This document shows, piece by piece, positions 14,022 to 43,439 of a DNA stretch of 64,000 bases. The stretch's first letter is position 1. Each line of letters opens with the position of its first letter. Source of the stretch: Fluviicola taffensis DSM 16823. Lineage in GTDB: Bacteria; Bacteroidota; Bacteroidia; Flavobacteriales_D; Crocinitomicaceae. Made by a program: the position numbers and the translations under genes. The stretch lies in the NCBI RefSeq assembly GCF_000194605.1, contig NC_015321.1, positions 4,278,001-4,342,000 of the forward strand, written 5' to 3'. The notes below the pieces were generated by a model. It was not told the origin of the DNA. It saw nothing but the letters and a program-made list of their open reading frames with translations, and did not search any database.

Positions 14022-14062
14022 ACTTATACAAAACCCCACTAGCGTATGTGTGTTTTCTATCG
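14022..14062 (-). repeat. Degenerate cassette-end element at the distal edge of the array
   Basis: On the minus strand, just after the YdeI stop, the sequence reads ATACGCTAGTGGGGTTTTGT. The arm of the intact element at 27884-28020 reads ATACGCAAGCAGGGGTTTCG, so this looks like one decayed arm of the same family. The matching YAAC core and the second arm are not seen. It probably marks the old distal end of the cassette array. Confidence 0.4.
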
Positions 14063-14638
14063 CAAGTGCTTCGGCTTCAGATTCTGCCCAGCACTTTGTG
14101 CAATTTCGTCAATACGTTTTTGCCGCGTTTCTTGTAGTTTCGCAAGGACAATCCAGCTCAACATCATTTTTTGTGCCGATTTACTCAAACTTAGAAAATA
14201 GTCCTTTGAACCTTTGTGAATTTTGAACGCTTGTTCTAAGTCGTTCGGGATTATCAATGCTTCAACTTCGTCCAGAATTATCCAGGATCCGTTTTGTTTT
14301 GCAGTTTCAACACTTTCGTAACCCGCTTTTGTCATTCGCCCGTTTTCAATGAGTTGCTGAACTTTTTCCTTGTTGATTTTTGACCATATGCTTTTAGGTT
14401 TACGTTTGCAAAAAAACTGCATAAACGAAGAATCATCAATTGTTTTTTTGGTACTGTCAATCCAACCGAAGCAAAGAGCTTCATCAACGGCTTCACTCCA
14501 ACTTATTGAAGGAATAGTAGACTTTTTTGTGTAATAAACAAGCCAAACAGATTGTTTGGACTGATGGTTTTTTTCCAGCCATTGTCTCCAATCTGTTTGG
14601 CTTTGAGGACAATATGTTTCTATTTCCTTATTAAGCAT
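14057..14638 (-). CDS. YdeI/OmdA family protein
   Basis: A 193-residue protein of the YdeI (bacteriocin-protection type) family: YCPQSQTDWRQWLEKNHQ, SVWLVYYTKKS, ISWSEAVDEALCFGWIDS (the strongest signature), FFCKRKPKSIWSKINKEKV and LSLSKSAQKMMLSWI. It overlaps the upstream hydrolase gene by 8 bp. It is the last gene of the minus-strand accessory block and probably shares a cassette with the hydrolase and the WYL regulator. Function uncertain. Confidence 0.9.
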   Translation of the reverse strand: MLNKEIETYCPQSQTDWRQWLEKNHQSKQSVWLVYYTKKSTIPSISWSEAVDEALCFGWIDSTKKTIDDSSFMQFFCKRKPKSIWSKINKEKVQQLIENGRMTKAGYESVETAKQNGSWIILDEVEALIIPNDLEQAFKIHKGSKDYFLSLSKSAQKMMLSWIVLAKLQETRQKRIDEIAQSAGQNLKPKHLR

Positions 14639-15593
14639 TCTGTTGTTCTAGCCATTTTAAAATTGATTGGGTTGTTTCCTCTTGCTTTTCTTGCTGAATC
14701 CAATGACCACAATCCAGACTAACAACATCCAAATTAGGAACGATATTTTTTAGGTTTTCAGATTTTGGAATTGTATCCTGTTCACCATATATCATAAGAG
14801 TCGGCTGATGAATGATTGGTTTTACATTTTCCATTAAGTGCCAATTTCTATCCATGTTTCTGTACCAATTTATACTTCCTGTAAACCCTGATGATTCGAA
14901 AGCAGACACGAACACAGACAGTTCATTATCCTCCATTAAGGGGTCTCCTAGTGGTTTTTCTGCTCTTGCAAGATTTATCATTAGCATGCCAGGCTCTGGT
15001 AGTGTGGGAGGAACATTTTTACGAAATATGTTACGTAGGAACTGGGATGTGTTTTCATTCATTATAGCATCTGCTACTCCTGGTTGTCGATTGAAGTGAA
15101 CAAAATAGAAGTCTCCTCCAAATAGTACTTCCATAAACTCGATCCATGGCTTTTCTCCACGCTCTTGATAAGGCAAAGCCAAGTTTATTATTTTATTTAC
15201 TCGTTCAGGATGTAATAGTGCCAGACTCCAAACGACATTTGCACCCCAATCGTGACCAACAAAAGTGGCATCTTCATATCCAAAGTAATCGAGTAATGCG
15301 ACTAGGTCACCTGTCAAGTGTTCAATGTCGTATTCAGTTACTTCAGTCGGACAGGATGAGTTCCCATAACCTCTTTGGTTTGGAATGATAACATGATAGC
15401 CAGCCGCAACAAGTGCAGGTACCTGATGACGCCAAGAAAAAGCATGTTCTGGAAAACCGTGACAGAGTACAATAGGTTTTCCAGCATTTTGTTTACCAGC
15501 TTCAAAGACTTCCAGTTTCACACCGTTGACTGAAATAAGAGTGGGTTTGGGAAAATTGGTTGAGTTAATCATTGAATTAATTACGTTTGTCAT
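14631..15593 (-). CDS. Alpha/beta hydrolase, epoxide-hydrolase-like
   Basis: A 320-residue alpha/beta hydrolase. The oxyanion region is CHGFPEHAFSWRHQ (HGFPE), the nucleophile elbow is FVGHDWGANV (Asp nucleophile, as in epoxide hydrolases and haloalkane dehalogenases), a late acid lies in LMIYGEQDTIP and the catalytic His in LDCGHWIQQEKQEE. Substrate unknown. A minus-strand TAAGTTTG box lies 28-35 bp upstream. It is flanked by a WYL-domain regulator and a YdeI-type gene, and the three are likely one regulated unit. Confidence 0.9.
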   Translation of the reverse strand: MTNVINSMINSTNFPKPTLISVNGVKLEVFEAGKQNAGKPIVLCHGFPEHAFSWRHQVPALVAAGYHVIIPNQRGYGNSSCPTEVTEYDIEHLTGDLVALLDYFGYEDATFVGHDWGANVVWSLALLHPERVNKIINLALPYQERGEKPWIEFMEVLFGGDFYFVHFNRQPGVADAIMNENTSQFLRNIFRKNVPPTLPEPGMLMINLARAEKPLGDPLMEDNELSVFVSAFESSGFTGSINWYRNMDRNWHLMENVKPIIHQPTLMIYGEQDTIPKSENLKNIVPNLDVVSLDCGHWIQQEKQEETTQSILKWLEQQNA

Positions 15594-15620
15594 TTTTCTG
15601 TCTTTTAAAGATTAATGATG

Positions 15621-15628
15621 CAAACTTA
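15621..15628 (-). promoter_or_regulatory. -7 promoter element for the hydrolase-YdeI pair
   Basis: TAAGTTTG on the minus strand fits TAnnTTTG, about 28 bp before the hydrolase ATG. Immediately upstream on the same strand TGTCACTTGTCA contains a direct repeat of TGTCA that could be a site for the WYL regulator; that link is a guess. Confidence 0.4.
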
Positions 15629-16360: not shown

Positions 16361-16402
16361 TTTTTCTGACTTTTGATGTTTGGGTGTTCGCTTCTAGCAT
16401 TA

Positions 16403-16503
16403 GGGCTAACGTTGTGGTGGAAATAGAATTCCTACTGTCTTGGAGCTCAGGATTTCATAGAAACACTTCAGCCGCACTATTACCAAACCGATGTTGTGCG
16501 TTC
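16403..16503. repeat. Cassette junction E12 (attC-like palindrome)
   Basis: The left core is GGGCTAAC (16403-16410) and the right core is GTTGTGCGTTC (16493-16503). The inner arms GGTGGAAATAG and CTATTACCAAACC pair imperfectly. The right core supplies the last codons of the neighbouring gene. It separates the WYL gene cassette from the 16480-17079 gene. Confidence 0.6.
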
Positions 16504-17101: not shown

Positions 17102-17140
17102 GACACATAACATTTCTCGGCTTGGCGATGTTATGCGTTC
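17102..17140. repeat. Short cassette junction E11
   Basis: GACACATAACAT and ATGTTATGCGTTC enclose only about 16 bp, with inverted repeats ACACATAACAT and ATGTTATGCGT. It is much shorter than the other junctions (130-190 bp) and looks like a minimal form. The inner part includes CTCGGCTTGGCG. Confidence 0.65.
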
Positions 17141-17142
17141 TT

Positions 17143-19047: not shown

Positions 19048-19169
19048 GCTGCTAATTTCGCGGTAGGCAAAGTAGCGCTTTTTTTCGAATATAATTATGC
19101 GCCATTTTGTTTACAGCATGCTAGTATTATTTATTTTTTAAAGTTCCGAAATATCTTGAATTCATAGTT
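19048..19169. repeat. Decayed cassette junction and gene remnant
   Basis: GCTGCTAATT (19048-19057) is a damaged 5' core for the methyltransferase cassette (TAAT in place of TAAC). Adjacent GCGGTAGGCAAAGTAGCGC could be an arm. Further right a minus-strand frame (MKEEKQFGLIPISEY, about 19125-19214) looks like the first 30 codons of a lost gene cut by the IS3 fragment. Confidence 0.4.
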
Positions 19170-19468: not shown

Positions 19469-19578
19469 GAATGAATTTCATACTTGAAGATAGCTAAAAT
19501 CAGTTTTTTGGCAATCAAAAAAGGTTGATTTTTATGAAAATTCGTTTGTGGAAAAAGGAAGGGTTTTTAGACAGTTTG
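19469..19578. mobile_element. Solo end of the IS1182-type element
   Basis: These 110 bp match 25527-25636, the upstream end of the intact element, with one mismatch seen (G for C in CGTTTGTGG). They end with the terminal inverted repeat GGGTTTTTAGACAGTTTG and are followed by ACGT and an attC-like palindrome. The transposase and other end are deleted. The insertion position within the palindrome is the same as for the intact copy. Confidence 0.9.
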
Positions 19579-19706
19579 ACGTTTGGCAGATTTGCGATGG
19601 GTGGGATTTTTAGCACTAAACTTCATTGATGCACAAAGCATGAATTTAGCACTTCACTGTCAAAGAAGCACGATACCCCCGCTTTTGCAAAACGGCTGTT
19701 AGCGGT
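19579..19706. repeat. Cassette junction E9, right part, entered by an IS remnant
   Basis: After the IS end the sequence reads ACGTTTGGCAGATTTGCG and ends with the core GTTAGCGGT (19698-19706). The arms TTTGCGATGGGTGGG and CCCCCGCTTTTGCAAAA pair imperfectly. The conserved interior words CACTGTC and GAAGCACGATACCCC are present. The left core is lost with the IS and deletion. Confidence 0.8.
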
Positions 19707-20343
19707 TCGGCTTTATTGTGGGTTTAATATTCAAATCGTTTCTACCAATAAAATAATAAAACCCAACCGTGTCTTTTTTGTTCTTAAACAATTTTAAGGC
19801 ATACTTATTTTCAGTATAAACTTCCAATTCTTCAATTACACCAAACTCCCACAGTATATCTTCTTGTTTCCCACGTTTCACATTCTCAAAGTGGATTGTG
19901 TCATTGGATATCCTATATGAACCAATCACTTCGGAGACTCCGAAACGAACATTTTTTTCTCTAAATGTAAAATCACTTTTTAATTTAAAGGTTTCAGCAC
20001 GTGTACACTCATCGTATCTATTTGCAACTAAAACATTGTTATTATCTATTTCAGCAAACTCCATAAAAAAATAATTCTTCAAAAAAGTAAGAGGTTTTGA
20101 AAAAGTTAGAATTAATATCGTAATAATAATACAGCAATTCAATAAACGTGTTTTATCAGTGAATTTTTCTTTAATCAAAAGGAAAATTTGCCTTAATAGT
20201 AGGAAGCTGAATACCAAATAAATTATCACAAGTACTATAAAAAAAGGTACTGTTATAAGTCCAAGTTTTCCTTCCCAATAGTAACTTAGGGTGAGGATCA
20301 AAAAGTAAATGATAGTCGATATTAATAGTCCTTTATTTTTCAA
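19699..20343 (-). CDS. Predicted membrane protein (C9), unknown
   Basis: A 214-residue protein with three hydrophobic segments (about 5-23, 28-50, 62-82) followed by a soluble domain of about 125 residues. The soluble part has DECTRAETFKLKSDFTFREK, a pattern seen in lipocalin-like lipoproteins. The stop codon TAA is part of the cassette core (CGCTAAC on the minus strand). The 3' core GTTAGCGGT pairs perfectly with ACCGCTAAC at 22041-22049, so the IS110-type element now lies within this cassette. Confidence 0.7.
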   Translation of the reverse strand: MKNKGLLISTIIYFLILTLSYYWEGKLGLITVPFFIVLVIIYLVFSFLLLRQIFLLIKEKFTDKTRLLNCCIIITILILTFSKPLTFLKNYFFMEFAEIDNNNVLVANRYDECTRAETFKLKSDFTFREKNVRFGVSEVIGSYRISNDTIHFENVKRGKQEDILWEFGVIEELEVYTENKYALKLFKNKKDTVGFYYFIGRNDLNIKPTIKPNR

Positions 20344-20390
20344 TTTTCTTGTCTGCTATTTATTCACAATATCGGTTCTTAAGCTTCTGA

Positions 20391-22010
20391 CTAACGTTTT
20401 CAATAGTAACTCAAAATCAATTTGTTACAAATCCCAATTCTTCCCTAGTCAACTCAAATTTATTGATTTGTTTTTTAACCCTTGCGACTAGTTTCAATTT
20501 TCTTTTTTCATCCAAGAATAAGTATTCAGTTGGTGGATTGTAAGCTTGTCCTTTTACGAGCATGTTCCATACAATAACTGCCAATTTTCTTGCTAGTGCA
20601 GTGACCGCTGTTGCACGTCCTTTTTTGTAGTTTATTCTTTTGAAGAAATCTACGAGCCAACCTTCTTTTAAATTTCCGATTGCATTTGCAGTATTTCTGA
20701 ATGCAATTTTTAGTCTCGAACTACCTTTGGGGATGTGATGTGAAAGTACTTTTCCACCGCTGATTTTGTTGTTTGGTGCTAGCCTGAGCCATGCTGTAAA
20801 TTGTTTGGATGACGGAAATTTCCGTATTCCTTCCAATCCTATCTCACTGATTATTGCTATTATAAGTCCTTCATTGATACCTTCAATAGCCATCAAATCA
20901 ATCCCTTCGAAGTATTGGTATGCAAGTAAATTCAAATCTGTATCGGTCAGACCATTTTTATTTTTTCGCTTGTGCTTTTTTTTTCAATGTAGTGTTGCTT
21001 TTTGTTGTCATTCTTGTCGACTATGTGTTTAAGCAAATCATTGATTTCAAGGTCGGTTTGTTGTATTTGTTTTTGAATGTACTTGTAAGTCTCCCACTCT
21101 TGCTTAAGTGCGAATAGGTAATCTTGTCTATTATTGTATTGCAATGCTCTGGCGATTTCATCTTCTGATTTTCGGCAATTTCCGTGTCTTAATTTTGCTA
21201 ATTCAGTTCCATTATATTCACCATTTACAAATGCCTCAATAATACTTGTGCCTGTGAGTCCAACAATATCCCTCACAACAACTTCCAACCTCATATTCAT
21301 CAAGCGAAGGTACTTTTGTATGCGCTTTACACAAGATGCACTTCTGTTTAACAGATTAAGTCGATGCCTTGAATAAGTTCTTACTGTATCTGTATCAGAA
21401 TCAGGTAAAAAACTTGCAGAAAGAAGTCCAAGCGAGTGTAGCTTTTGTATCCATTGACAATCCTTGATATCCGTCTTTTTTCCTTTAATGTTTTTAGTTT
21501 GTCGACCATTAACTAAAATGACATCAAATCCTTGACCAACCAATGTTGAAAACAGATTTTGCCAATAGGTACCGGTACTTTCCAAGGCAATTGAATTTAC
21601 ATTTTTGGCTTTTAACCACTCGCATAAATCCATTTGATCCTGACTGTAAACACCAAATTCCTTCACATCTTCGGCATTCTGTCCCACAGCAACCCAATGA
21701 CTTCTGCTACCAATGTCGATTCCTGCTGCATTGGGATTTACCACCTCCAACGAAATTTTCTTTTCTTCCATAACACTGTTTTTGAAATGAATAAAAACTC
21801 CAAGGGTTGTGTCTTTAGAATTTGGAATTATTCTGATCGGGATTCCCAAAGCTTCGGTATCACCATTTAACTCTAACACAATGCAACTGAAAAATCACCT
21901 ACACATACACAACCTTACCTTGATGACGCCAGGGGTTCTAAGACACCATTGCTTAAACCGGTCTTTACAAGGAGCAATTTAAAGATAAAAAAATGGTCGT
22001 TAGCAACAAA
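20391..22010. mobile_element. IS110-family element in the cassette array, ends unresolved
   Basis: The element around the split transposase is flanked on one side by CTAACGTTTTC (20391-20401) and on the other by GTCGTTAGC (22002-22010). These look like two halves of a cassette junction, so it may be inserted in one. IS110 elements usually lack terminal inverted repeats and target duplications, so I cannot fix the ends. Between 21880 and 22004 there is no gene. Confidence 0.6.
20417..21879 (-). pseudogene. IS110-family transposase split by a frameshift
   Basis: The N-terminal part (20947-21879) has the DEDD-type catalytic domain: PNAAGIDIGSRSHWVAVG, ALESTGTYWQNL, GRQTKNIKGKKTDIKDC. The C-terminal part (20417-20935) is the transposase_20 domain with IEGINEGLIIAIISEIG, FTAWLRLAPNNKISGGK and the serine region GSSRLKIAFRNTANAIG. 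The frames are joined across a run of nine A (minus strand; 20976-20984), where one base gained or lost would restore a single protein. It may be inactive, a slippage site, or a sequence error. Confidence 0.88.
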
Positions 22011-22049
22011 ACTCAACCGTTTTGAAATGGTAGGGGGATGACCGCTAAC
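22005..22049. repeat. Gene-less 45-bp segment between two cassette cores
   Basis: GTTAGCAAC at the left and ACCGCTAAC at the right enclose 27 bp of unrelated sequence. It may be the leftover 5' end of cassette C9 after IS110 insertion, or the remains of a deleted cassette. Confidence 0.4.
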
Positions 22050-22231
22050 GTTTGGCGGCTACCAGTAGTTGGCGTTTGGAACACTCAACTGTTTATACCT
22101 CCAAATGTTTATTGAAAGATACAAATGTTTGTTAGCAAAGCCAAAACAAATTAAAGGTCTGCGAAGCAGGCAATAAATGGCTTTGCGATGACCACGTCCG
22201 CGCCAATTACTGGTAGGTGCTGTTAGCGGCA
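22041..22231. repeat. Cassette junction E8 (attC-like palindrome)
   Basis: The left core is ACCGCTAAC (22041-22049) and the right core GTTAGCGGCA (22222-22231). The arms 22055-22074 and 22201-22220 pair at 17 of 20 positions; the shared part includes CTACCAGTA and TTGGCG. The interior is about 125 bp, the longest seen here, and contains a further TGTTAGCAAAGCC word. Confidence 0.85.
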
Positions 22232-22232
22232 G

Positions 22233-23165
22233 TTAAAATTTCCAACAGGTTATTATATTTGGTTTGAGATATTCATAGCTAATAAACACCTCTTGTTCGT
22301 CAAAAAGTTGAGCAATTTTTACTTTTTCGTTCAGTATTATTTCTTTTTCTATTTCGTTTTTTATAAGCGAATAAACCCAAATTTTATTATTGTGAATAAG
22401 ATATAGCATTTCTTCATTTTCGGAAACAACGAATTGATCAAAATGAAATTCAAATTTAATTTCTCTATTGTTTGTTAGGTTTAATGTTGAGCAAATGTTA
22501 ATTTGATTTATGGGTCCAATTCTTTCAGGTGTGTTTGAAGTGGCTTCAACTACTTTTCCCAATTGCAGATAAAATTTGTCTGTTTTGCTTTTATATGCAC
22601 TGTGAAAAATTCCAGTATGCAAAACCTCCTTTAGCTTGTTAGTAGTTAAATCATATTGTTGTATGCTTCCAATTCTAGGGCAAAAAATAAAGTATGTATT
22701 TTCACTTTCTTTGTAAATTCCTCTACAAGTCTTTAGCTTTTTTTTAAGTCCTGTCTCGTTTTCGTAGTTGTAAACAAAGAGAAAGTCGGCATTATAGTTC
22801 ATTAATAAAAGCGTATCCTTGTCATTTGATGAAATGTAATCGCTATATTTTAGGATGCCTTTTTCAAACTTTTTGATAACTGAAAAGTCCCTTCTATTAA
22901 TTTGAAAAATTTTATTGTCAGAAATCGCGAAAATGTTTGTTTTGTCAGGGTTGAAATATAAACAACGAACAGAATTTTTAATTGATACTGTTTTCAATTC
23001 TTTTCCGTCCTCAAATGAAAGTTGTCTTAATTTCATTGAAGGATAAGATGAACCCCAACCGTCCGAAATATAAAATTTTGTATTGTCAAATGGGTCTATA
23101 ATTGGTGTTAGTCCACCAAAAATTCCGTTTTTTAATTCTGTTGTCCAAATTTCTGTTGGCTTCAT
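22233..23165 (-). CDS. Beta-propeller-like protein (C8), unknown
   Basis: A 310-residue soluble protein with repeated blade-like segments: LRQLSFEDGKELKTVS, CLYFNPDKTNIFAISD, NKIFQINRRDFSVIKKF, YNADFLFVYNYENETG, IGSIQQYDLTTNKLKEVL and NKIWVYSLIKNEIEKEI. The spacing of about 40 residues suggests a WD40/YncE-like propeller. There is no signal peptide. The start at MKPTEIWTTEL is chosen because an upstream in-frame Met (23201) lies in the recombination core. The cassette cores pair at 9 of 10 positions. Confidence 0.75.
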   Translation of the reverse strand: MKPTEIWTTELKNGIFGGLTPIIDPFDNTKFYISDGWGSSYPSMKLRQLSFEDGKELKTVSIKNSVRCLYFNPDKTNIFAISDNKIFQINRRDFSVIKKFEKGILKYSDYISSNDKDTLLLMNYNADFLFVYNYENETGLKKKLKTCRGIYKESENTYFIFCPRIGSIQQYDLTTNKLKEVLHTGIFHSAYKSKTDKFYLQLGKVVEATSNTPERIGPINQINICSTLNLTNNREIKFEFHFDQFVVSENEEMLYLIHNNKIWVYSLIKNEIEKEIILNEKVKIAQLFDEQEVFISYEYLKPNIITCWKF

Positions 23166-23183
23166 TGAGTAGTCTGGGTTAAT

Positions 23184-23322
23184 TGCAGCTAACGTGCTCA
23201 CGCTTGGAGAAGGAGCCGAGTTTAAAATTAATATTATTTGCGATCCAAGATCGTTTTGTTTTCAATTATTCGTTTTTCGTAATCAAGATACCGGCTCTTG
23301 CGCTAGACGTGTGTTAGCAGTA
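23184..23322. repeat. Cassette junction E7 (attC-like palindrome)
   Basis: The left core is TGCAGCTAAC (23184-23193) and the right core GTTAGCAGTA (23313-23322). The arms ACGCTTGGAGAAGGAGCCG and CCGGCTCTTGCGC pair imperfectly. The 5' core overlaps the region just upstream of the C8 start. Confidence 0.8.
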
Positions 23323-23325
23323 GCT

Positions 23326-23913: not shown

Positions 23914-23923
23914 TTTCTATATT

Positions 23924-25765: not shown

Positions 25766-25823
25766 TGGCGTTCCTTTGTTCGAGGTAATTGTAGAATTCA
25801 TTAGTGCGTGTTATTTTGGCATG

Positions 25824-32333: not shown

Positions 32334-32334
32334 T

Positions 32335-34956: not shown

Positions 34957-34976
34957 TTCTACTTATTTAAATATCA

Positions 34977-37679
34977 TTATTTCTTTTTTCTTGATTGCTT
35001 CTGCTTCGCAAAAAGCGTGTCTTTCTGCAACATTTCTTCATACTGTTTAAACAAGTATTCCAAACGCTCGGTGTCGTTTTTGAAAGGTTGCAAACGGTAA
35101 CATTGCTCTATGGCAGTATCGAGTGCTTGATGAGCTTGTAACAACCCTTTGGGCATTGTGGTTGGATTATACAATTGTGCCATTGTTTTACTTGGATGTT
35201 TAGCTCGCTCATCTAATATGGCAAAAACATAAAGATTTAAATTTTCCTTTTGCTTGTTTGTGATGTCTGGAAACGGAAAGGTGTTGTAGCAAAGAGTATT
35301 TGAATATTGCATATCCATTTTTAATCTTCCTGCAACAGCTTTTACCCAAACTATATGCATTCTTGAAGATATAACACCAAAAAGCCACGGCTGAACTTTA
35401 TATATCACTCTTGTGGCGTTTGAAGGAACGTATGAATCATCAAAATAACCTATCGGAATATAGTTTCTTCTTTCAGAACCTGTTTGAGGAACCAAAATAA
35501 ATTCTCCTTCTTGATGTTTATCTTCGTCAAAAAAGTGAGGCGTTTCTGCTTTCTTCTTTGTAGCTAGCTTTTTACTATTTAATCTAAAAATTTCTACCTT
35601 TTCAAATCGTTCAGCGAGCTCTTTAATTTTATATGCTTCTTTAACGTTATCTTCTGTTATGTGTATGCAATATCTGTTCGTTCCTTTTATAAACTCGGAT
35701 GCTCCAATATATCTTTTTATAAATTTTGCAGTAATTGGGTTTTTCGATATTATTTTGTCTTTTTCCTCTTGGTCTAATAGTAAATTACCATTGTCTCCGG
35801 GAGAACTTCCTTTAATCATTGGGGATAATTTACTTAAAGTTTTATTTCTCGGTATAACATAAACATTCGAGGTATTTGCTAAATAAGGGCTTATATTTTT
35901 TACACTTTGCTTTAGATTTTGATTGTAAAGGAATTTGTCTGTGCCATCAATATTTCTAACCCCTATTATTACTACTGCAACTCCTGCGTTTCCTTTGGCG
36001 TTATTCGTCCATTTAAAAGATTGGTGTGCAAAGTCAATTTCTTGTCCTTTACTCAAAACTAATGGCCACAATAAAGCTACTTGTTCCCCTTGCGTTATAG
36101 AATTGGTGGTTACAAAAGCATATTTAGCTTTTGTATTCTGAATGTAATTGGTTCCCTTATAAAACCAACACGCTATGTAATCAAGTTTTTTATAGTTATT
36201 TACTCGTGAAAAGACGATTTTCATATCTTCCTTTTGGGTTTCGTCTTGTCGGCTATAACCCAAATAAGGCGGATTCCCAATCACATATACTTCATCTGTT
36301 GAAGAAATTGGGCATACCTCATTCCAATCTCTTCTTGTAGCATTACCTTGTTTTATTTGTCCTGCTTCTTTTAATGGTAATATAGGTTTCGATTTTCCGT
36401 AATCAAACAATCGTTCTTCAAACACTTTGTTCATTTGATGTTCTGCTAACCAAAGTGAGAGTATTGCCATTTCGTGGGCAAAATCGTCTATTTCAATGCC
36501 ATAAAATTGCGAAAGCTGTATCTCAGTCCATTTTATAGTTGGACTTTGTCCTTCTAAATCTGTAATTTTTTCTAAAATCTTGATTTCTAAAAGGCGTATT
36601 TCCTTATAGGTAATGATTAAGAAATTTCCACTACCACAAGCTGGGTCAAAGAATTTGATTTTTGAAATTCTTTTGATGAGTGCTCTTAACTGATTTATGG
36701 TTGTTGCATTTTCATAGGCATCATACAATTCATCCAAAAACAAAGGTTTTATCAATTTCAAGATGTTTTCTACCGAAGTGTAGTGCATCCCCAAATCGCT
36801 TCGGTAGTCTTTGTCGACCACCGCTTGTATCATCGATCCAAAAATATCGGGATTGATTTCGGACCAATTTAAATCGCCCAATTCAATTAGTGTTTTACGC
36901 GCTTTTGAGGTAAAAATTGGAGATGCTATTTTTTGACCAAACAAACCACCGTTTACGTATTCAAACTTCCTCAGGTATTCGGGCAAATGGTCTGCATTTT
37001 CGGTATTCAAACGATCAAATAAATCATTTAAAAACAGATGCGTGTCTTTACCGCTTTCTGCAGTGTGTTGTGCTAATGTATCGGTAAAAATACTTTTGTC
37101 TTTAAATATCTCGGTATCTTCTGCAAAAAAACAAAACAGCAAACGCGACAAGAAAATATTGAGGTTGTGAATACTTTCTTTGGAATTGTAAATAGCTGGA
37201 TTTTCCTCAATCAACAAATCATATAAATCTGCCATTTTGTAGGAAGCGTTTCTGTCGGCTTCATTATTGTTGGATGCGTTATAAACTTCGCTACCTGCTA
37301 ATGGCAAAAAGAAATCAAAGTAATTGGGTAATTCTTTTAATTGGATATCTAAGTTCTTGCCTAATTTTAAATCTTTTGCAACGAGTTGTTTGAAGTCGGT
37401 AAGAATGGCAAATCTAGGTTGCTGTTTTAAGATACGTTCTTCTTTTGCGACCTCTTCAATGCTACTCAGCAGTTTGTCTGATGCTTCAACTTTATAAAAA
37501 ATCTTCTTTTTGTAAAGTAGTTCTCCGTCAACCTTAGATAAATTGTAATCTCCTTTTTTTAGTCGTGTTACAGATGTTTTAGAAATGCCGTATGCAACCA
37601 GCAAATCAAAGACAAATTCTTCTTTTGAGAAGTTGTCAATTAGGTTCTGAACATTATGTTTTATTTCGGTTGATTTCAC
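34977..37679 (-). CDS. MmeI-like N6-adenine DNA methyltransferase
   Basis: A 900-residue protein of the MmeI type. Methylase motif I is FFDPACGSGNFL (about 342-353) and motif IV is VIGNPPYLGYS (about 466-476), typical of gamma-class N6-adenine enzymes. A TRD follows, with LVPQTGSERRNYIPIGYF, and the C-terminal signature LFGVISSRMHIVWVKAVAGR and CYNTFPFP. I do not see the MmeI N-terminal PD-(D/E)XK motif, so it may only methylate, with cutting left to other operon members. The start is GTG. It is the modification component of the cassette. Confidence 0.88.
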   Translation of the reverse strand: MKSTEIKHNVQNLIDNFSKEEFVFDLLVAYGISKTSVTRLKKGDYNLSKVDGELLYKKKIFYKVEASDKLLSSIEEVAKEERILKQQPRFAILTDFKQLVAKDLKLGKNLDIQLKELPNYFDFFLPLAGSEVYNASNNNEADRNASYKMADLYDLLIEENPAIYNSKESIHNLNIFLSRLLFCFFAEDTEIFKDKSIFTDTLAQHTAESGKDTHLFLNDLFDRLNTENADHLPEYLRKFEYVNGGLFGQKIASPIFTSKARKTLIELGDLNWSEINPDIFGSMIQAVVDKDYRSDLGMHYTSVENILKLIKPLFLDELYDAYENATTINQLRALIKRISKIKFFDPACGSGNFLIITYKEIRLLEIKILEKITDLEGQSPTIKWTEIQLSQFYGIEIDDFAHEMAILSLWLAEHQMNKVFEERLFDYGKSKPILPLKEAGQIKQGNATRRDWNEVCPISSTDEVYVIGNPPYLGYSRQDETQKEDMKIVFSRVNNYKKLDYIACWFYKGTNYIQNTKAKYAFVTTNSITQGEQVALLWPLVLSKGQEIDFAHQSFKWTNNAKGNAGVAVVIIGVRNIDGTDKFLYNQNLKQSVKNISPYLANTSNVYVIPRNKTLSKLSPMIKGSSPGDNGNLLLDQEEKDKIISKNPITAKFIKRYIGASEFIKGTNRYCIHITEDNVKEAYKIKELAERFEKVEIFRLNSKKLATKKKAETPHFFDEDKHQEGEFILVPQTGSERRNYIPIGYFDDSYVPSNATRVIYKVQPWLFGVISSRMHIVWVKAVAGRLKMDMQYSNTLCYNTFPFPDITNKQKENLNLYVFAILDERAKHPSKTMAQLYNPTTMPKGLLQAHQALDTAIEQCYRLQPFKNDTERLEYLFKQYEEMLQKDTLFAKQKQSRKKK

Positions 37680-37714
37680 GTGTCCTTGTTTATTTGTTTT
37701 TTAGCGGTCACGTG
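37676..37714 (-). promoter_or_regulatory. Two TCACGTG words before the methyltransferase
   Basis: TCACGTG occurs at 37676-37682, over the GTG start codon, and at 37708-37714, 32 bp apart. CACGTG is a palindrome, and the small XRE protein just upstream could bind it, as controller proteins do in restriction loci. No experimental basis. Confidence 0.3.
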
Positions 37715-37764
37715 GAACTCGCTATTAGCAATTGGTTTATTAATCAATATTTTGGTTGCTCGTT

Positions 37765-37974
37765 TCATTTACTTTCTTGTTCAGGTTTGTTAGAAATAAT
37801 CAATTCTTTCACGTCAATGTCCAAAATCTCTGCTATTTCCATTAAGGTTTCCAATCTCGGTTGTTGTCTATTTTGAGCATAAGCGTTTACCATATTGTAG
37901 CTTTTTCCAAGTTTCTCAGCCAACCAAGTTTGTTTAATTCCTTTTTGTTCTAACACTTCCTTAATTCTGTTCAT
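37765..37974 (-). CDS. Small XRE-type regulator (controller-like)
   Basis: A 69-residue HTH protein: IKQTWLAEKLGKSYNMVNAYAQNR is the HTH, followed by QPRLETLMEIAEILDIDVKELI. It is the length of restriction controller (C) proteins and is the first gene of the six-gene operon, so it probably regulates it. The following methyltransferase starts 85 bp after its stop. Confidence 0.88.
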   Translation of the reverse strand: MNRIKEVLEQKGIKQTWLAEKLGKSYNMVNAYAQNRQQPRLETLMEIAEILDIDVKELIISNKPEQESK

Positions 37975-38264
37975 TGTAATTCGATCTTGTCTATTTTCAA
38001 AGGTCTCATTGATTACTCACAGCACTTTTATTTTTTATTAGTGTTCGTGAATCTTTCAGATTTCGCTTCGCTTATTTCAAACGTTAATTTGTCAGCCGCT
38101 AAATTAGTCAGTTTATTTTAAATATCTCAAAAAATTGTGTATATAATGTGGGTATTCTGTTCAGGTGCGGTGGGAAAGGGCAAGCTCTTTTGGTTTTTTA
38201 GCGTTGGGTTTGAGTGTCGGAAAAAACCAAATGTGCTTGACCGAGCGTTGGCATTTTTACACTG
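37975..38264. other. 5' leader of the six-gene cassette
   Basis: About 290 bp between the XRE start and the core at 38265. It is longer than other cassette leaders and should carry the operon promoter. An imperfect inverted repeat is present (GGCAAGCTCTTTTGGTTTTTT-like arms near 38178 and 38240), flanked by GCGTTGG words that match the 3' spacer at 28021-28141. Confidence 0.45.
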
Positions 38265-38401
38265 ACGCACAACGGTTTCTTGCTTGGCGGCGTGCCGACT
38301 TTTTAAAGTAATCTCAAGCCCGAAGTTAGATTATTAATTTTCATAAAAATAGTTTTTCGAAGCAAGATCGAAGGCATGTAGCCAAACAAGTGTTACAGGA
38401 T
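38265..38401. repeat. Cassette junction E3 (attC-like palindrome)
   Basis: The left core is ACGCACAAC (38265-38273) and the right core GTTACAGGAT (38392-38401). The arms 38279-38296 and 38373-38390 pair at 14 of 18 positions (CTTGCTTGGC). The interior differs from the E4/E5 subtype. Confidence 0.85.
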
Positions 38402-38405
38402 GTGA

Positions 38406-38771
38406 TTATTTAATTTGCTTCCAAATGAGATTCTTAAACAACCAACCAATTAATTTAAACGGAAACAAAATTAAACTTAACCAAATTGGTCGACTTTTCT
38501 TTTCGTTTGATTTTGGTTTAGCGGATGTGCTGTTTTTATCATTTCCACTAGTTGAACCTTTTTCACTTATATACAAAACATCAAATTCTCCCAATTTACA
38601 TGGTTTGGAAATCTCAGGATGTTGTGAAAGAACAGTTGATTTGAAAAAAATAGTTTTATCGTCTTTCTTTATAGGAATTTTAACATCTTCATCAATTGTA
38701 ACATCAACACTCATTTGAGAATTGTTTGCGGAACATGCTCTCTTAATTGTAACATTATAAATTTTCGCCAT
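38406..38771 (-). CDS. Unknown protein with C-terminal hydrophobic helix (C3)
   Basis: A 121-residue protein. The first 70 residues look like a small beta-rich domain (MAKIYNVTIKRAC, MSVDVTIDEDVKIPIKKDDKT). A charged Ser/Lys linker (about 75-95) leads to a hydrophobic amphipathic C-terminus (WLSLILFPFKLIGWLFKNLI), likely a membrane anchor or pore-like tail. It overlaps the preceding gene by 17 bp. The architecture would suit a membrane effector, but there is no direct evidence. Confidence 0.7.
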   Translation of the reverse strand: MAKIYNVTIKRACSANNSQMSVDVTIDEDVKIPIKKDDKTIFFKSTVLSQHPEISKPCKLGEFDVLYISEKGSTSGNDKNSTSAKPKSNEKKSRPIWLSLILFPFKLIGWLFKNLIWKQIK

Positions 38772-39249
38772 ACTTAAATTGTTTAGTTTTTGGGTTATTA
38801 ATTAATTTGTTTCTATTCAATCTTTTACCATCAAATTCTTCGATTTCCTCTTCATTTAACAGAATATATTTCCCTTCTAATAAATTCTTTTTAAGAAAAA
38901 TAATCAATAAACCGTTCAATTTTTGAGTTATAGTTTTATGTTTGAAATGAAGATGAACTTTTGATGAAATCCCAGTTTCGGAATAATCTGAAATGGTTTT
39001 TATTTGAAAATAATGTAAGTTTTTATTGTCATTTATCGAAATATCAAAGCCTTTTTGTGAATGATTTTTTGAAAGTTCAATTATTGCTTTTGGGTAGATT
39101 GTTTTTAAAATGTAAGCACCTAAAAACTCACCTATTACACCAGTTTTCTGATCACCAATAGGAATTATTTCATTATTGTTTTTTTGAAAATTTTCCAGTT
39201 TTTCATAGGCATTCGCGTATTCAGTAATTATATCAATGACGTTGTTCAT
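38755..39249 (-). CDS. PD-(D/E)XK-like protein (C3)
   Basis: A 164-residue protein. KTGVIGEFLGAYIL (helix with Glu), then GFDISINDNKNLHYFQIKTIS, matches a nuclease-fold core: Asp in the first strand and Q-x-K in the second. This is typical of small restriction-endonuclease-like domains (DUF with E...D...QxK). It shares a cassette with a small hydrophobic-tail protein. Both cores, GTTACAGGAT and ATCCTGTAAC, are perfect reverse complements over 10 bp. Confidence 0.7.
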   Translation of the reverse strand: MNNVIDIITEYANAYEKLENFQKNNNEIIPIGDQKTGVIGEFLGAYILKTIYPKAIIELSKNHSQKGFDISINDNKNLHYFQIKTISDYSETGISSKVHLHFKHKTITQKLNGLLIIFLKKNLLEGKYILLNEEEIEEFDGKRLNRNKLINNPKTKQFKYGENL

Positions 39250-39274
39250 TATTTCTCGGTTGTGTTCTTCTCAT

Positions 39275-39411
39275 ATCCTGTAACGTTCTCGCGCTACAAG
39301 CAGTTTGGGATTAAATTAAGCCTTATCTTCGGATTTGCCAAAACTTCCAAATACAAGACCAATTTCAAATTAAGCCAAATGCCCAAATTGCTTGTAGCGT
39401 GTGTTGGTGGC
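39275..39411. repeat. Cassette junction E2 (attC-like palindrome)
   Basis: The left core is ATCCTGTAAC (39275-39284) and the right core GTTGGTGGC (39403-39411). The arms 39292-39309 and 39382-39399 pair at 17 of 18 positions (CGCTACAAGCAGTTTGGG), the best pairing of all the junctions. Confidence 0.92.
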
Positions 39412-39416
39412 TGGCA

Positions 39417-41348
39417 CTATTTCTGTCCAAATAGTTTTTGATACCATTTTAAATTTCTTAATCGTTTAATTTCCTGTTCGTTCTGTTTTGTTGTTGCTTC
39501 CAATTCAGAGATAGTTTTTTTCTGTTCTAGTATAGTTTTTTGATATTGTTGTATTGACTTTTTAGCGTTTTCTTTTTCGCTTATCAAAATAACAATTTCT
39601 TTTTTTTGTTTTTCGTTTTCTTTTTCAATTTCAACTGTCTTGTCAAGCAGGAGTTTTATTGCATTATTCTGTTCGTTGATTTTTATTAGTTGACTATTTT
39701 TCTGTATTTCTATACTTTCAATCGTGCGTCCAAAATTGATATTTTCTTGGATTCTTTTTTCAAGTTCTTCAATTGTATTATTGAATTTTTGTTTAAACGA
39801 GCCAAGTTTAGAGGCAGTAACAGTGAAATATTTTTTGAAACTTTCAGTTTCAATATCATTTCTATATTTTATAGCTTTTGTGAAGTTGCTATAAGCTTCC
39901 GCAAAGTCAAGCAATTTAATTCCTTCACGAACTTTTTTGTAAAAGAAATCAGCTTTCCCTGAATTTAATTCTTGTACAATTAATGTACTTGGTGTTTCAT
40001 TTTCTGCAAACTTAAGAACTTGTGGATCAGTTTTAATAGCTGTAAAGTCAATTTTAGTTTTTAGTACTAAACCATTGAAGGAAGTGCAACGGCTTAACGC
40101 AACATATACCTGTCCAGATGCAAAAGCACTTCCTAAATCTGCTATAACTTTTTCAAAAGTTAAGCCTTGACTTTTGTGAACAGTTATTGCCCAAGCAAGT
40201 TTTATGGGGTATTGTGTGCATGTTCCAATAATTTCTTCTTCAATAATTTCTTTTTCCTTATTCCAACTATATCTTATGTTATTCCAAATCTGCTTTTCAA
40301 TAATTAGCTCAATGATTTCTCCTCTATCTTCATATTCAGCAGTAATTTTATGGCCTTCTATTTTGCTAATTTTGGCTATTTTACCATTGTAAATTCTTTT
40401 AGGCTTATCATTTTTAATAAACATTATTTGAGCACCTTCTTTTAATTGTAGTACTCTGTCAGTTGGCATTATGTTGTCAGGAAAATCATTTGTAATTGTT
40501 GCTTCAAAAAGTTGCATTTCTCCTGGTAAATCTGCTAACTTAGATAAATTAGTACTTTCTACTATTTTATTATGTGTTGCAAGAGTTATGTAATTTGCAT
40601 TTTCTGTTGTTGAAAAAGTGGGGTTGAATTTTGAGTTAAGTAAGTTAAGTTCGTTTTGGTTTACTTTATTAATCCTTACCCTGTTTAAAAGTTCAATAAA
40701 TTCTTGTTCGTTTTGGCGATAAATCTTTTTAAGTTCGATATAAACAGGTTTATTATTCAAAATTACTTTTGAGCTAAAAAAGAAAGTGCTTTCATAGAAT
40801 GGTTGAAGAATATGCCATTCCTTGTCAATAGGAGGTAATTGAAAAGTATCACCTATGAGAATGACTTGTACTCCACCAAATGCTTCATTTTCTCTTTTTC
40901 TGTAAACACGAAGAAGTCTGTCAATTACATCTAATAAGTCGCACCTGACCATAGATATTTCATCTATGATTAGTAATTCAATTCCTCGAATTATTTCTAA
41001 TTTTTCTTTATTATATTGAAAGTGATTATAAATAGTACTTCTATCTATATCACCATCTTCTGGACTTGTCCTTAATCTTTTGTCATTTGGTACAAATGGT
41101 CCAAAAGGAATTTTGAAAAATGAATTAATTGTTTGTCCACCTGCATTCATTGCAGCAACGCCTGTATAAGCTAAAACAATTGTATTTTTTTCGGTAGTAT
41201 GCCTTAGATATTTTAAAAATGTAGTTTTACCAGTGCCTGCTTTTCCTGTTAAGTAAATAAGTGGATGACCATATTTTACAAGTTCAGAAGCCCAAAAGAA
41301 TTCTTCATTTGTTTCATCTAACTCTATATTGTCAATTACTGTTGCCAT
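39417..41348 (-). CDS. PIF1-like helicase with C-terminal coiled coil (C2)
   Basis: A 643-residue helicase of superfamily 1B. Walker A is LTGKAGTGKTTFLKYL (near 25-40), then AYTGVAAMNAGGQTINSFFKIP, motif II IIDEISMVR, motif III ILIGDTFQLPP, and the C-terminal AWAITVHKSQGLTFEKVI with YVALSRC. From about 480 a long coiled coil follows (EKENEKQKKEIVIL). The start at MATVIDNIEL is chosen because upstream in-frame codons to 41432 lie in the recombination site. Such helicases occur in anti-phage and mobile loci. It is alone in its cassette. Confidence 0.88.
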   Translation of the reverse strand: MATVIDNIELDETNEEFFWASELVKYGHPLIYLTGKAGTGKTTFLKYLRHTTEKNTIVLAYTGVAAMNAGGQTINSFFKIPFGPFVPNDKRLRTSPEDGDIDRSTIYNHFQYNKEKLEIIRGIELLIIDEISMVRCDLLDVIDRLLRVYRKRENEAFGGVQVILIGDTFQLPPIDKEWHILQPFYESTFFFSSKVILNNKPVYIELKKIYRQNEQEFIELLNRVRINKVNQNELNLLNSKFNPTFSTTENANYITLATHNKIVESTNLSKLADLPGEMQLFEATITNDFPDNIMPTDRVLQLKEGAQIMFIKNDKPKRIYNGKIAKISKIEGHKITAEYEDRGEIIELIIEKQIWNNIRYSWNKEKEIIEEEIIGTCTQYPIKLAWAITVHKSQGLTFEKVIADLGSAFASGQVYVALSRCTSFNGLVLKTKIDFTAIKTDPQVLKFAENETPSTLIVQELNSGKADFFYKKVREGIKLLDFAEAYSNFTKAIKYRNDIETESFKKYFTVTASKLGSFKQKFNNTIEELEKRIQENINFGRTIESIEIQKNSQLIKINEQNNAIKLLLDKTVEIEKENEKQKKEIVILISEKENAKKSIQQYQKTILEQKKTISELEATTKQNEQEIKRLRNLKWYQKLFGQK

Positions 41349-41375
41349 TGTTTCTTGTTTGCAGTTTCTATGCTT

Positions 41376-41512
41376 GCCACCAACGTTTTGGCGCTTGGCG
41401 CAGTGGCGGATTTCGGAGCACAAAACTGTCAATACACCACAAAAGTTGATGCGAGGTAGAATGTTGAATTAACCACGTCATCCGCCATTGAGCCAAACGC
41501 CTGTTATGTGCC
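41376..41512. repeat. Cassette junction E1 (attC-like palindrome)
   Basis: The left core is GCCACCAAC (41376-41384) and the right core GTTATGTGCC (41503-41512). The arms 41390-41411 and 41480-41501 pair at 19 of 22 positions (GGCGCTTGGCGC...). The interior has GGAGCACAAAACTGTC. Confidence 0.92.
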
Positions 41513-41513
41513 G

Positions 41514-42218
41514 CTATTCTTCGCATATATTTATTATTCTGTGACTTTTTTCAGTCCAAATATTTGTCTTTTTGTCAAGATTGTAAATATGTTCTCCTAA
41601 GCCACAAACTCCTGCATGAACATAAGTTGTTAAAGTTTTAGACTTACTATTAATTTTCGATGGAAAAAATACAACAGAGTCCGTTAAGAACTTATCTAAG
41701 ATGAATTTCTTGTCAGTTGCTTGAGTATAATAGCTGTACAAGGGGCCGCCATTTCCGCCCCCTTCATTAATAACGGCAATGTCGTCATATCCGTCAAAGT
41801 TCAAATCCGCTACCACTATATCACCATAATAGTTGTCTACAATTTCTCTTTCTACATTAAATTTTGTTGTGAATGAAGTCATACTGTCGCAACTTAAAAA
41901 CATAAATGAATAATAGAACAAAGATGAAATAGAGAAACTGTCAATCGTTAATTTCGTTTTTTTGTCCTTTATGTAAACAGTCAAGTAGCAAGAGTCTTGT
42001 TTTTCAATGGTGTCCGAATAACGTTTAAAGTCAATAGATAAGTCGAATTGAGTTGAAAGATTTACTTGTTCACATTTATTTGTCTCAGTAGTAATGAATT
42101 TTTGTTTAGGTTCATTCATTTGTCGAGGAGTGTCAGTGGAAGTACTGTCGTCCTTCTGTTCTTGTCTTGTCGAACAGCCGAAAAGTATAATTGTCAATAT
42201 GATTATTGTCTGTCTCAT
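41514..42218 (-). CDS. Lipoprotein with FG-GAP-like motif (C1)
   Basis: A 234-residue lipoprotein: signal peptide IIILTIILFGCST, lipidated Cys at about 15, then a low-complexity linker. It contains VADLNFDGYDDIAVINEGGG, a calcium-binding FG-GAP/VCBS-like strand. It is the first cassette next to the recombinase. The cores GTTATGTGCC and GGCACATAAC are perfect reverse complements over 10 bp. Confidence 0.8.
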   Translation of the reverse strand: MRQTIIILTIILFGCSTRQEQKDDSTSTDTPRQMNEPKQKFITTETNKCEQVNLSTQFDLSIDFKRYSDTIEKQDSCYLTVYIKDKKTKLTIDSFSISSLFYYSFMFLSCDSMTSFTTKFNVEREIVDNYYGDIVVADLNFDGYDDIAVINEGGGNGGPLYSYYTQATDKKFILDKFLTDSVVFFPSKINSKSKTLTTYVHAGVCGLGEHIYNLDKKTNIWTEKSHRIINICEE

Positions 42219-42224
42219 TATAGT

Positions 42225-42300
42225 GGCACATAACTTATATATACAAGATCAAAATGATCCCTTTAGGTCTTGTTGAAAGAAATAGGCGAACAAATGATTC
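42225..42300 (-). other. attI-like junction between the array and the recombinase
   Basis: The first cassette ends at GGCACATAAC (42225-42234). Beyond it the palindromic arm seen at all other junctions is missing. Instead there is ACAAGATC...GTCTTGT (about 42241-42270), a short inverted repeat that could bind the recombinase. Then comes the recombinase stop codon at 42327. The one-sided structure is what a primary integration site should look like. Confidence 0.55.
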
Positions 42301-42326
42301 GTGTTTTTCAAATATAATAGATTTTT

Positions 42327-43439
42327 CTATAGCTCATCGAACGGACTGCGAATGCTTTGTATTGATTTATTAGATACATGTGTGTAAATCTCAGTAGTCG
42401 TACTGCTTTTATGCCCCAATAATTCTTGAATGAAACGAATATCGGTACCGCTTTCTAATAAATGAGTTGCATAACTGTGGCGCAGCCAATGCAGTGTAAC
42501 ATCCTTTTTGATATTCGTTTTTGTTAATGCTCGTTTCAAAACCAATTGCAAACTTCGTTCGCCATATTTCTCACCAGGCTTTTCTCCTTCAAAAATCCAT
42601 TTTATAGGACGGTATATTTTGTAATATTCTCTCAATTGCTCTAATAATAGTTTGCTTAACGGAACTACTCTGTCCTTTTTCCCTTTTGCTTGATGGATAT
42701 GAATTAATAATCGGTCTGATAAAATATCTTTCGGTTGAAGGCTAAGTAATTCGCTGCGTCTTAATCCGCAAGCATAAATAACACTCAGCATCATTCGGTG
42801 CTTAAGATTCGTTGTAGCATACAACAGCTGCTTCACTTCTTGTTTACTCAAGACATTGGGTAAAGTCTTCGCTGATCGTGGTCGTTTTACCAATTCTGGA
42901 TCCAATTTTACACCTGCATGTACCTTGCAAAATAATTTCACGGCATTCAATACCTGATTTTGATACGATGCAGATAATTTTTTCGCAATAATATACTCGT
43001 TGTTAAACTGCGCCAAATCATCATTCGTTATCAGGTTTGTGGATTTAACTCCAACAAAACGCAAAAACACTCCTATACTTTCGCTATAGGTTTTAATGGT
43101 ACTTTCACTGTAACGGGTTCGTTGCATATAGGCAACAAATACAGCAATGGCTACTTTGCTTTCGGTATTCAAATCAGTAAGTTGACTGTCAATTTGTTGA
43201 AGTCTCAATTTCTCTTTTACTTCTTGAAGACCTTCTGCTTTTGGAAAGATCTCCACCACTTTTTCTACATGTTCTTCGGTAAAAGACACATACCAACAAC
43301 GATGCGTGGCACTCCAAAATACTGCTGGAAATTGATCCCTAATTTTTAGAACCAATTCCTTATTCCACATAAAATGAAATCCCAATTGTTGCTGACTTTT
43401 ATGTCTAAAAATAGATAGTCGGATAGTTGTTTCAAGCAT
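42327..43439 (-). CDS. Tyrosine recombinase with integron-integrase-like tail
   Basis: A 370-residue tyrosine recombinase. An N-terminal domain (1-70, FHFMWNKELVLKIRDQF, WSATHRCWYV) precedes a SAM-like core-binding domain (90-185) and the catalytic domain. Catalytic residues: R227 (GLRRSELLSL), K252 (AKGKKDR), H317 and R320 (HWLRHSYATHLL), H343 (LGHKSS), Y352 (TEIYTHV). The last residues, SIRSPFDEL, resemble the GVRSPLDAL-type tail of integron integrases. The extra IntI domain before the HxxR motif is absent. It lies at one end of the cassette array, reading toward it. Confidence 0.92.
   Translation of the reverse strand: MLETTIRLSIFRHKSQQQLGFHFMWNKELVLKIRDQFPAVFWSATHRCWYVSFTEEHVEKVVEIFPKAEGLQEVKEKLRLQQIDSQLTDLNTESKVAIAVFVAYMQRTRYSESTIKTYSESIGVFLRFVGVKSTNLITNDDLAQFNNEYIIAKKLSASYQNQVLNAVKLFCKVHAGVKLDPELVKRPRSAKTLPNVLSKQEVKQLLYATTNLKHRMMLSVIYACGLRRSELLSLQPKDILSDRLLIHIHQAKGKKDRVVPLSKLLLEQLREYYKIYRPIKWIFEGEKPGEKYGERSLQLVLKRALTKTNIKKDVTLHWLRHSYATHLLESGTDIRFIQELLGHKSSTTTEIYTHVSNKSIQSIRSPFDEL

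What the first reader, a model, noticed from the sequence alone, without database searches (positions are those of the whole stretch)
14022..43439. An integron-like gene cassette array with a non-classical integrase
Over 25 kb all genes are on the minus strand, in units of one to six genes. Units are separated by imperfect palindromes ending in YAAC and GTTR. One end carries a tyrosine recombinase and a one-sided attI-like site. The 9-10 bp before and after each unit are unit-specific reverse complements. This is the organisation of an integron, but the recombinase lacks the IntI-specific domain and the cores do not fit RYYYAAC/GTTRRRY. Classical integrons are rarely reported in Bacteroidota, and a standard search would probably not see this one. 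I read it as a distinct cassette system.
Basis: partly seen in the sequence, partly recalled or inferred. Interest (0 to 1): 0.96.

Follow-up and report, generated by a model that had tools for sequence, protein, structure and literature searches.

The report
Integron without the IntI domain
A freshwater bacterium's chromosome carries a long row of gene packets next to an enzyme that likely inserts and removes them, laid out like the integrons known for spreading resistance genes but with an enzyme lacking the part that defines integron enzymes, and relatives of this enzyme beside such packets occur in many other Bacteroidota genomes.

Summary
Window 19,571-42,234 is the integrase-proximal part of a gene-cassette array in a 4,633,577-bp genome (the size of Fluviicola taffensis RW262T). 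Nine attC-like hairpins (two split by an IS) share a covarying stem (87% of cells paired). Cassettes begin with 9 nt complementary to their own attC R'' box (142 of 188 pairs, against 3.2% of other pairings), as expected of circles opened at G|TT. The array goes on outside the window: 35 sites, one orientation, 110 kb. The adjacent tyrosine recombinase lacks the ~41-residue IntI domain, as do all complete relatives aligned (59 rows), and lies apart from IntI in a tree. It occurs in 111 of 395 genomes of the phylum; 100 of these hold such sites, against 85 of 284 others. Two Chryseobacterium plasmids share backbone, integrase and attI and diverge exactly at G|TT into different cassettes. Near-identical cassettes recur in the array with core-precise ends. 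It works like an integron but fails the IntI-domain and GTTRRRY criteria: a new variant. Catalysis by this integrase is inferred, not shown.

The parts
42327..43439 (-). Integrase: tyrosine recombinase, 370 aa; N-terminal module (about 1-70), SAM-like domain, catalytic domain (R227, K252, H317, R320, H343, Y352); no IntI-specific insertion
42234..42326 (-). attI region between integrase stop and first cassette; TATATATAAG|TT, crossover G at 42234
   Evidence: motif in 45 of 62 family genes
41384..42234 (-). Cassette 1 (FG-GAP-like protein 41514-42218)
   Evidence: start and own R'' complementary at 13 of 14 nt by eye; core coordinates
41375..41515 (-). attC-like site of cassette 1
39284..41384 (-). 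Cassette 2 (PIF1-like helicase 39417-41432)
39275..39415 (-). attC-like site of cassette 2
38273..39284 (-). Cassette 3 (two proteins of unknown function, 38406-39249)
38264..38404 (-). attC-like site of cassette 3
27891..38273 (-). Cassette 4, 10.4 kb, six ORFs: type IIG restriction-modification (MmeI-like), PDC-S06-like ATPase, RhuM/PDC-S05, helicase, T5orf172 protein, 69-aa ORF
27882..28024 (-). attC-like site of cassette 4
27188..27891 (-). Cassette 5 (unknown protein 27322-27870)
27179..27319 (-). attC-like site of cassette 5
25638..27188 (-). Cassette 6 (Fic 26336-27136 and mechanosensitive-channel-like 25824-26336)
25629..25769 (-). attC-like site of cassette 6, its R' core split by the IS
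23930..25644 (-). IS1182-family element inserted in the attC core (4-bp flanking repeat ACGT; coordinates include it)
23193..23930 (-). Cassette 7 (unknown protein 23326-23913)
23184..23325 (-). attC-like site of cassette 7
22049..23193 (-). Cassette 8 (unknown protein 22233-23201)
22040..22234 (-). attC-like site of cassette 8
19580..22049 (-). Cassette 9 (19699-20343) with an IS110-family transposase inside (20417-21879)
19571..19710 (-). attC-like site of cassette 9, its R' core replaced by an IS1182 remnant (about 19469-19585)
19056..19119 (-). Decayed attC-like junction (E 0.33)
17102..17142 (-). Short decayed attC-like junction (E 0.31)
16401..16502 (-). Decayed junction seen by eye, no model hit

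Best explanation
The window holds the integrase end of a gene-cassette array that likely works as an integron, in which a tyrosine recombinase without the IntI-specific domain is predicted to insert and excise circular cassettes at a G|TT crossover shared by attI and by folded attC-like hairpins. Shown by sequence: stems conserved in structure rather than sequence; cassette starts complementary to their own R'' box, as a circle opened inside R' would leave them; sites reading away from the integrase; one attI crossover; core-precise cassette differences between two plasmids and core-precise cassette copies within the genome. Inferred: that this integrase is the catalyst, that the attC bottom strand folds as single-stranded DNA, and that a replicative step finishes the reaction as in known integrons (the last from established knowledge). 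Speculative: that the N-terminal module, which resembles HARP domains weakly, helps to recognise the folded site in place of the IntI domain.
For: Structure with covariation: 9 window sites; 91 rows from regions outside the window's genome, 92.9% paired, score 0.625 against 0.166 shuffled (fitted to the model, four rows are opposite-strand shadows). Own R'' rule: 142 of 188 pairs; 42 of 53 in loci not used to train the model, against 93 of 2756. Polarity: sites read away from the integrase at 28 of 28 loci with sites (of 51 examined) and 28 of 29 more (of 32). Association: sites in 100 of 111 genomes with the integrase, 85 of 284 without, 39 of 39 at E<=1e-80, 14 of 79 with IntI only. Plasmid pair diverging at AAG|TT. 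attI motif in 45 of 62 family genes, against a mean of 8.6 and a maximum of 13 in 50 shuffled runs; 5 of 17 contigs ending within 260 bp of the stop end 2-4 nt past the crossover. An 848-bp unit present five times and a 3077-bp block twice at 99.9-100% identity, six inspected ends all at YAACG. No TIGR02249 match over cut-off in the genome. G follows AAC in 256 of 257 sites, as in most classical attC (PMC2727003, passages).
Against: No excision or integration was observed; all is comparative. 11 of 111 genomes with the integrase show no site at the threshold, and 71 of 205 with neither integrase nor IntI do; Fisher's test there ignores kinship. One site points toward the integrase (G369), on a contig cut 3 nt past the attI crossover. 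23 of 51 integrases showed no site within 15 kb, several of them near contig ends. Cross-genome match ends: 9 of 248 lie within 12 nt of a core; random placement gives 1.4 (maximum 6 in 300 runs). Of 14 uncut ends in nine inspected pairs, 7 lie at a core, 1 at an R'' box, 6 elsewhere. HARP: 3 of 22 N-termini match (best E 0.0005, under Pfam's cut-off), not the window's own; 14 of 61 family ORFs, some truncated, lack the module.
Confidence: 0.9

Rival explanations
1. The array is an orphan cassette cluster made by another recombinase (a classical IntI in other hosts, or host XerC/XerD), and the neighbouring recombinase is unrelated to it.
For: Sites occur in 71 of 205 genomes with neither gene, so arrays can outlive or travel without an integrase; the own genome has small clusters and single sites far from the integrase.
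Against: Polarity at 56 of 57 loci with sites; 39 of 39 co-occurrence for E<=1e-80; homology of the Chryseobacterium plasmids runs through the integrase and attI and stops at the crossover; in 10 of 11 IntI neighbourhoods from genomes with both genes the model finds nothing, while the five neighbourhoods of the domain-less integrase scanned with them all have sites.
Confidence: 0.06
2. The junctions are ordinary repeats: a palindromic REP-like or IS-derived family scattered between operons, with gene units merely adjoining them.
For: Two IS families sit in the array and an IS shares sequence with two junctions.
Against: Unit-specific complementarity (142 of 188 against 3.2%), one orientation for the 35 sites of the array, attI, and cassette copies with core-precise ends are not expected. 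The IS1182 copies are inserted into the sites, not their source.
Confidence: 0.02
3. It is a classical IntI integron whose integrase has simply lost the domain by decay, so the array is now fixed.
For: Distal junctions in the window are decayed; several family members elsewhere have stops inside.
Against: The domain is missing in all complete relatives aligned (59 rows), and the catalytic residues are invariant in 74 aligned proteins; IntI is one separate clade; near-identical cassette copies look recent.
Confidence: 0.02

Closest known systems
IntI-type (classical) integrons
   Same: attI beside the integrase, one-way cassettes, attC with R''/stem/variable loop/R', G after AAC, cassette start complementary to own R'' (recalled for classical ones), orphan clusters
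   Different: integrase lacks the IntI-specific domain; R' fits GTTRRRY in 21 of 257; complementarity about 9 nt with a near-constant mismatch at position 11; attI carries TATAARYRAG|TT and an upstream inverted repeat
Treponema chromosomal integrons (PMC3607928, passages)
   Same: integrase transcribed toward attI, in the direction of the cassettes
   Different: Treponema integrase is an IntI; eleven loci of this family have the array beyond the 5' end instead (six, five)
XerA/XerC/XerD recombinases
   Same: fold and catalytic core; no IntI insertion; NCBIfam NF040815 is the best-scoring family (211 bits, cut-off 220)
   Different: patchy, array-linked, N-terminal module; the genome has two other Xer-like proteins at 36% and 30% identity
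'Integron-like' tyrosine recombinase subgroup (PMC8138268, passages)
   Same: the paper notes that the catalytic-domain insertion is not fully conserved in that subgroup
   Different: the passages seen describe no cassette arrays or attC sites for members without it

Membership tests
Integron (IntI type) | Integrase with the IntI-specific additional domain | tested here: not met
   TIGR02249 aligns 7-179 and 239-315 only, 197 bits against cut-off 265; span D256-H317 is 61-64 aa in 59 complete family rows (window gene counted twice), 103 in 20 of 20 IntI
Integron (IntI type) | attC sites: imperfect palindromes with R''/R' cores, stem and variable terminal structure | tested here: met
Integron (IntI type) | RYYYAAC/GTTRRRY core consensus (recalled) | tested here: not met
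   21 of 257 R' boxes fit; the YAAC/GTTR part is present in most
Integron (IntI type) | attI next to the integrase where cassettes insert | tested here: met
   (sequence comparison; insertion itself not observed)
Integron (IntI type) | Cassette start is complementary to its own attC R'' box (crossover at G|TT; recalled) | tested here: met
Integron (IntI type) | Cassettes in one orientation reading away from attI | tested here: met
   one exception, G369
Integron (IntI type) | Recombination of the folded bottom strand of attC | not testable with these tools
   structure conservation only
Integron (IntI type) | Integrase inside the IntI clade | tested here: not met
   14 IntI rows one clade, support 100; window in a separate 38-row clade, support 94 (quick tree, tool warns of long branches)
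Xer dimer-resolution recombinase | Present in nearly all genomes of the group as a housekeeping gene (recalled) | tested here: not met
   73 of 150 genomes of the order at E<=1e-40, 111 of 395 of the phylum at E<=1e-50
HARP domain (PF07443) | Score above the Pfam cut-off for the N-terminal module | tested here: not met
   3 of 22 N-termini match, best 20 bits against 25
HARP domain (PF07443) | Similar fold | tested here: inconclusive

The most novel reading that the evidence does not exclude
Bacteroidota run a second lineage of integrons, in which folded single-stranded attC recombination works without the IntI domain because an N-terminal HARP-like module, of a kind known for binding forked DNA, reads the hairpin instead; it may have arisen from a Xer-like recombinase independently of IntI.
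Probability: 0.3. Interest if true: 0.93.

Novelty: new variant of a known kind. Interest (0 to 1): 0.87.

Why it matters
Integron surveys recognise the integrase by the IntI domain, so this integrase should escape them; IntegronFinder 2.0 names one complete integron in Bacteroidetes proper, in Salinibacter ruber (PMC9024848, passages). Whether attC searches already report these arrays as orphan clusters was not tested. Here 111 of 395 genomes of the phylum carry the integrase, and two plasmids do. It makes testable whether the IntI domain is needed to recombine folded single strands, gives Bacteroidota a cassette-capture route that carries candidate defence genes, and supplies matching attI/attC pairs.
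Full report
What is there. The window is bases 4,278,001-4,342,000 of a single-contig genome of 4,633,577 bp, the size published for Fluviicola taffensis RW262T (PMC3236050, abstract; a search of its text found no 'integron' or 'integrase'). From 42,234 down to 19,571 lie cassettes of one to six ORFs read on the minus strand, separated by palindromic sites; at the upper end sit a 370-aa tyrosine recombinase (42327-43439, minus) and an attI-like site. Strand bias itself is not distinctive because most ORFs listed above 43.8 kb are also on the minus strand.

The sites. Nine sites align and share a stem in which 87.4% of cells are standard pairs, 14 of 23 pairs show changes on both sides, and covariation is 0.628 against 0.192 shuffled; sliding the partner by 1-3 columns drops pairing to 37-43%. 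A covariance model R1 from these nine finds 38 sites in the own genome at E<=1 (one is an opposite-strand shadow of another). With a broader model R2, 53 sites remain in the own-genome stretches fetched, after dropping gapped and overlapping rows: 35 of them, all in one orientation, run from 4,209,514 to 4,319,515 and end near the integrase at 4,320,330; 18 lie elsewhere in small clusters or alone. Between 4,265,165 and 4,297,571 no site was found, so the array is in two parts. Over 257 sites in 67 loci of the own and other genomes, G follows AAC in 256 and T precedes GTT in 245; G at that place is also found in most classical attC (PMC2727003, passages).

The cassette rule. In a circular cassette opened inside R', the first bases of the linear cassette should match the reverse complement of its own R'' box. 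On consecutive sites with R1, 80 of 117 pairs match at 6 or 7 of 7 variable positions against 471 of 13,572 other pairings. With R2 it is 142 of 188 against 1,112 of 35,156, and in loci not used to train R2, 42 of 53 against 93 of 2,756. Match is 0.79-0.99 for positions 1-9, 0.53 at 10, 0.03 at 11 and 0.69 at 12: a near-constant mismatch that could mark the recombining arm (inference). Pairs that pass are 428-10,382 bp apart, median 1,264 (n = 142).

The integrase. R227, K252, H317, R320, H343 and Y352 are invariant in 74 aligned proteins (their catalytic roles are assigned from knowledge of the family). NCBIfam TIGR02249 (integron integrase) covers it in two pieces, skipping profile positions 180-238, and scores 197 bits against a cut-off of 265. 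In an alignment with 20 IntI from the same GTDB phylum, the span where the IntI domain lies is 61-64 residues in the 59 complete family rows (the window gene twice; two further rows were truncated), 103 in 20 of 20 IntI and 65-69 in two Xer proteins. In a quick tree IntI is one clade (support 100) and the window lies in a separate clade of 38 rows (support 94); the tool warns that the IntI and Xer branches are long. The AlphaFold model has mean pLDDT 92 and pTM 0.62 and matches XerA (4a8e, 5hxy) and the integron integrase 2a3v with similar E-values. An N-terminal module of about 70 residues is detected in 47 of 61 family ORFs; Pfam HARP matches 3 of 22 such modules below its cut-off, not the window's. 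HARP domains bind forked DNA (recalled); the link is a lead only.

Association. The integrase matches at E<=1e-40 in 73 of 150 genomes of the order and at E<=1e-50 in 111 of 395 of the phylum. R1 sites at E<=0.001 occur in 79 of 100 genomes of the family, R2 sites at E<=1e-6 in 185 of 395 of the phylum: in 100 of 111 genomes with the integrase, 85 of 284 without, 39 of 39 with E<=1e-80, 14 of 79 with IntI only, 25 of 28 with both, 71 of 205 with neither (Fisher p 4e-29, kinship ignored). Genomes with neither resemble the orphan clusters known from classical integrons. In 11 neighbourhoods of IntI from genomes with both genes, R2 finds sites in one; in the five neighbourhoods of the domain-less integrase scanned beside them it finds sites in all five.

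Geometry. Of 51 integrases whose surroundings I had, 28 have sites within 15 kb and at all 28 they read away from the integrase, 22 beyond its 3' end and 6 beyond its 5' end; 23 show none, several of them near contig ends. Of 32 more that share a contig with a displayed site, 29 have sites within 15 kb: 28 away, one toward (G369, whose contig ends 3 nt past attI). Co-orientation of integrase and cassettes is also the layout of Treponema integrons (PMC3607928, passages).

attI and junction-precise change. Of 62 family genes, 45 have a motif TATAARYRAG|TT (7 or more of 10) after the stop, median 95 nt, range 67-136; shuffled sequences give 8.6 on average, 13 at most in 50 runs. The 87 nt around it (85 before the crossover) fold with mean z -3.0 (27 of 41 below -2) against -0.27 (2 of 38) inside first cassettes (mononucleotide shuffles). 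Chryseobacterium plasmids NZ_CP041688 and NZ_CP094530 share backbone and integrase at 86-90% identity; identity stops at CATATAAACAAG|TT and different cassettes follow. Of 17 contigs that end within 260 bp of the integrase stop, five end 2-4 nt past the crossover, as expected if assemblies branch there (inference). In the own array an 848-bp unit occurs five times and a 3,077-bp block twice at 99.9-100% identity with different neighbours; the six ends inspected lie at YAACG. Cross-genome matches support this less evenly: of 14 uncut ends in nine inspected pairs 7 lie at a core, 1 at an R'' box and 6 elsewhere, and over 248 ends 9 lie within 12 nt of a core against 1.4 expected.

IS elements as probes. 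All six full copies of an IS1182-family element found in the genome sit in the YA|ACGK core of such sites, in one orientation relative to the site: four in the main array and two in distant clusters. A partial copy lies at 917,218-917,474 and a remnant at about window 19469-19585.

Cargo. Cassette 4 carries a type IIG restriction-modification enzyme with matches to PADLOC candidates PDC-S06 and PDC-S05; cassette 6 a Fic protein (10 of the window's proteins scanned).

Known or not. IntegronFinder 2.0 names one complete integron in Bacteroidetes proper, in Salinibacter ruber, besides Chlorobi and Ignavibacteriae, and earlier work of the same authors had found only integrase-only elements in Bacteroidetes (PMC9024848, passages). 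Reviews list Bacteroidota among phyla with integrons (PMC8618304, PMC9668308, passages). PMC9668308 treats the IntI-specific domain as defining and cites Messier and Roy 2001 for its need (title seen in that reference list; the paper is not held). [quoted passage not shown] Ten searches listed no paper describing cassette arrays run by integrases without it; subscription papers and preprints were not searchable.

Verdict. The system works like an integron on the comparative tests that could be run, with the exceptions told above, and fails membership on the IntI domain, the IntI clade and GTTRRRY. I therefore call it an integron-like system, a new variant, not an IntI integron. Catalysis by this integrase, strand choice and the role of the N-terminal module await experiment.

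Noticed in passing
window 23930-25644; genome 4212205, 4229733, 4232141, 4301930, 4498379, 914852: IS1182-family element: six of six full copies are inserted in the YA|ACGK core of attC-like sites in one orientation; flanking 4-bp repeats ACGT or ACGG are equal at five copies, unequal at one. An attC-seeking IS of a family for which I recall no such habit.
   Followed up: partly
window 20417-21879; L252 19281-20282; L256 12868-14223: IS110-family transposases lie inside cassette arrays or among genes after the integrase, recalling the attC-targeting IS1111 group (recalled).
   Followed up: no
L255 9889-10739 (NZ_CP092416, Flagellimonas marinaquae plasmid): Two attC-like sites flank a dihydrofolate reductase family gene, beyond the 5' end of a 43.5% identical recombinase and reading away from it, with an erm(F) gene between; possible divergent-type cassette on a mobilizable plasmid.
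   Followed up: no
L252 30661-30763: A second copy of the attI region (93% identical to that of L253) lies at the far end of the Chryseobacterium plasmid array.
   Followed up: no
G073, G091, G051, G060, G085, G092; G448, G526, G408, G601, G252: A second architecture: eleven integrases at 36-47% identity with the array beyond their 5' end, divergent from them.
   Followed up: partly
257 aligned sites: Position 11 of the cassette start is A in 89% and matches its own R'' partner in only 3% of pairs; possible arm or strand marker.
   Followed up: partly
window 61794-62291 and L100 14935-16212: Proteins with STSYS- or STSSSK-type repeats; in L100 the repeat gene is fused to a segment shared at 100% identity with genome G198.
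   Followed up: no
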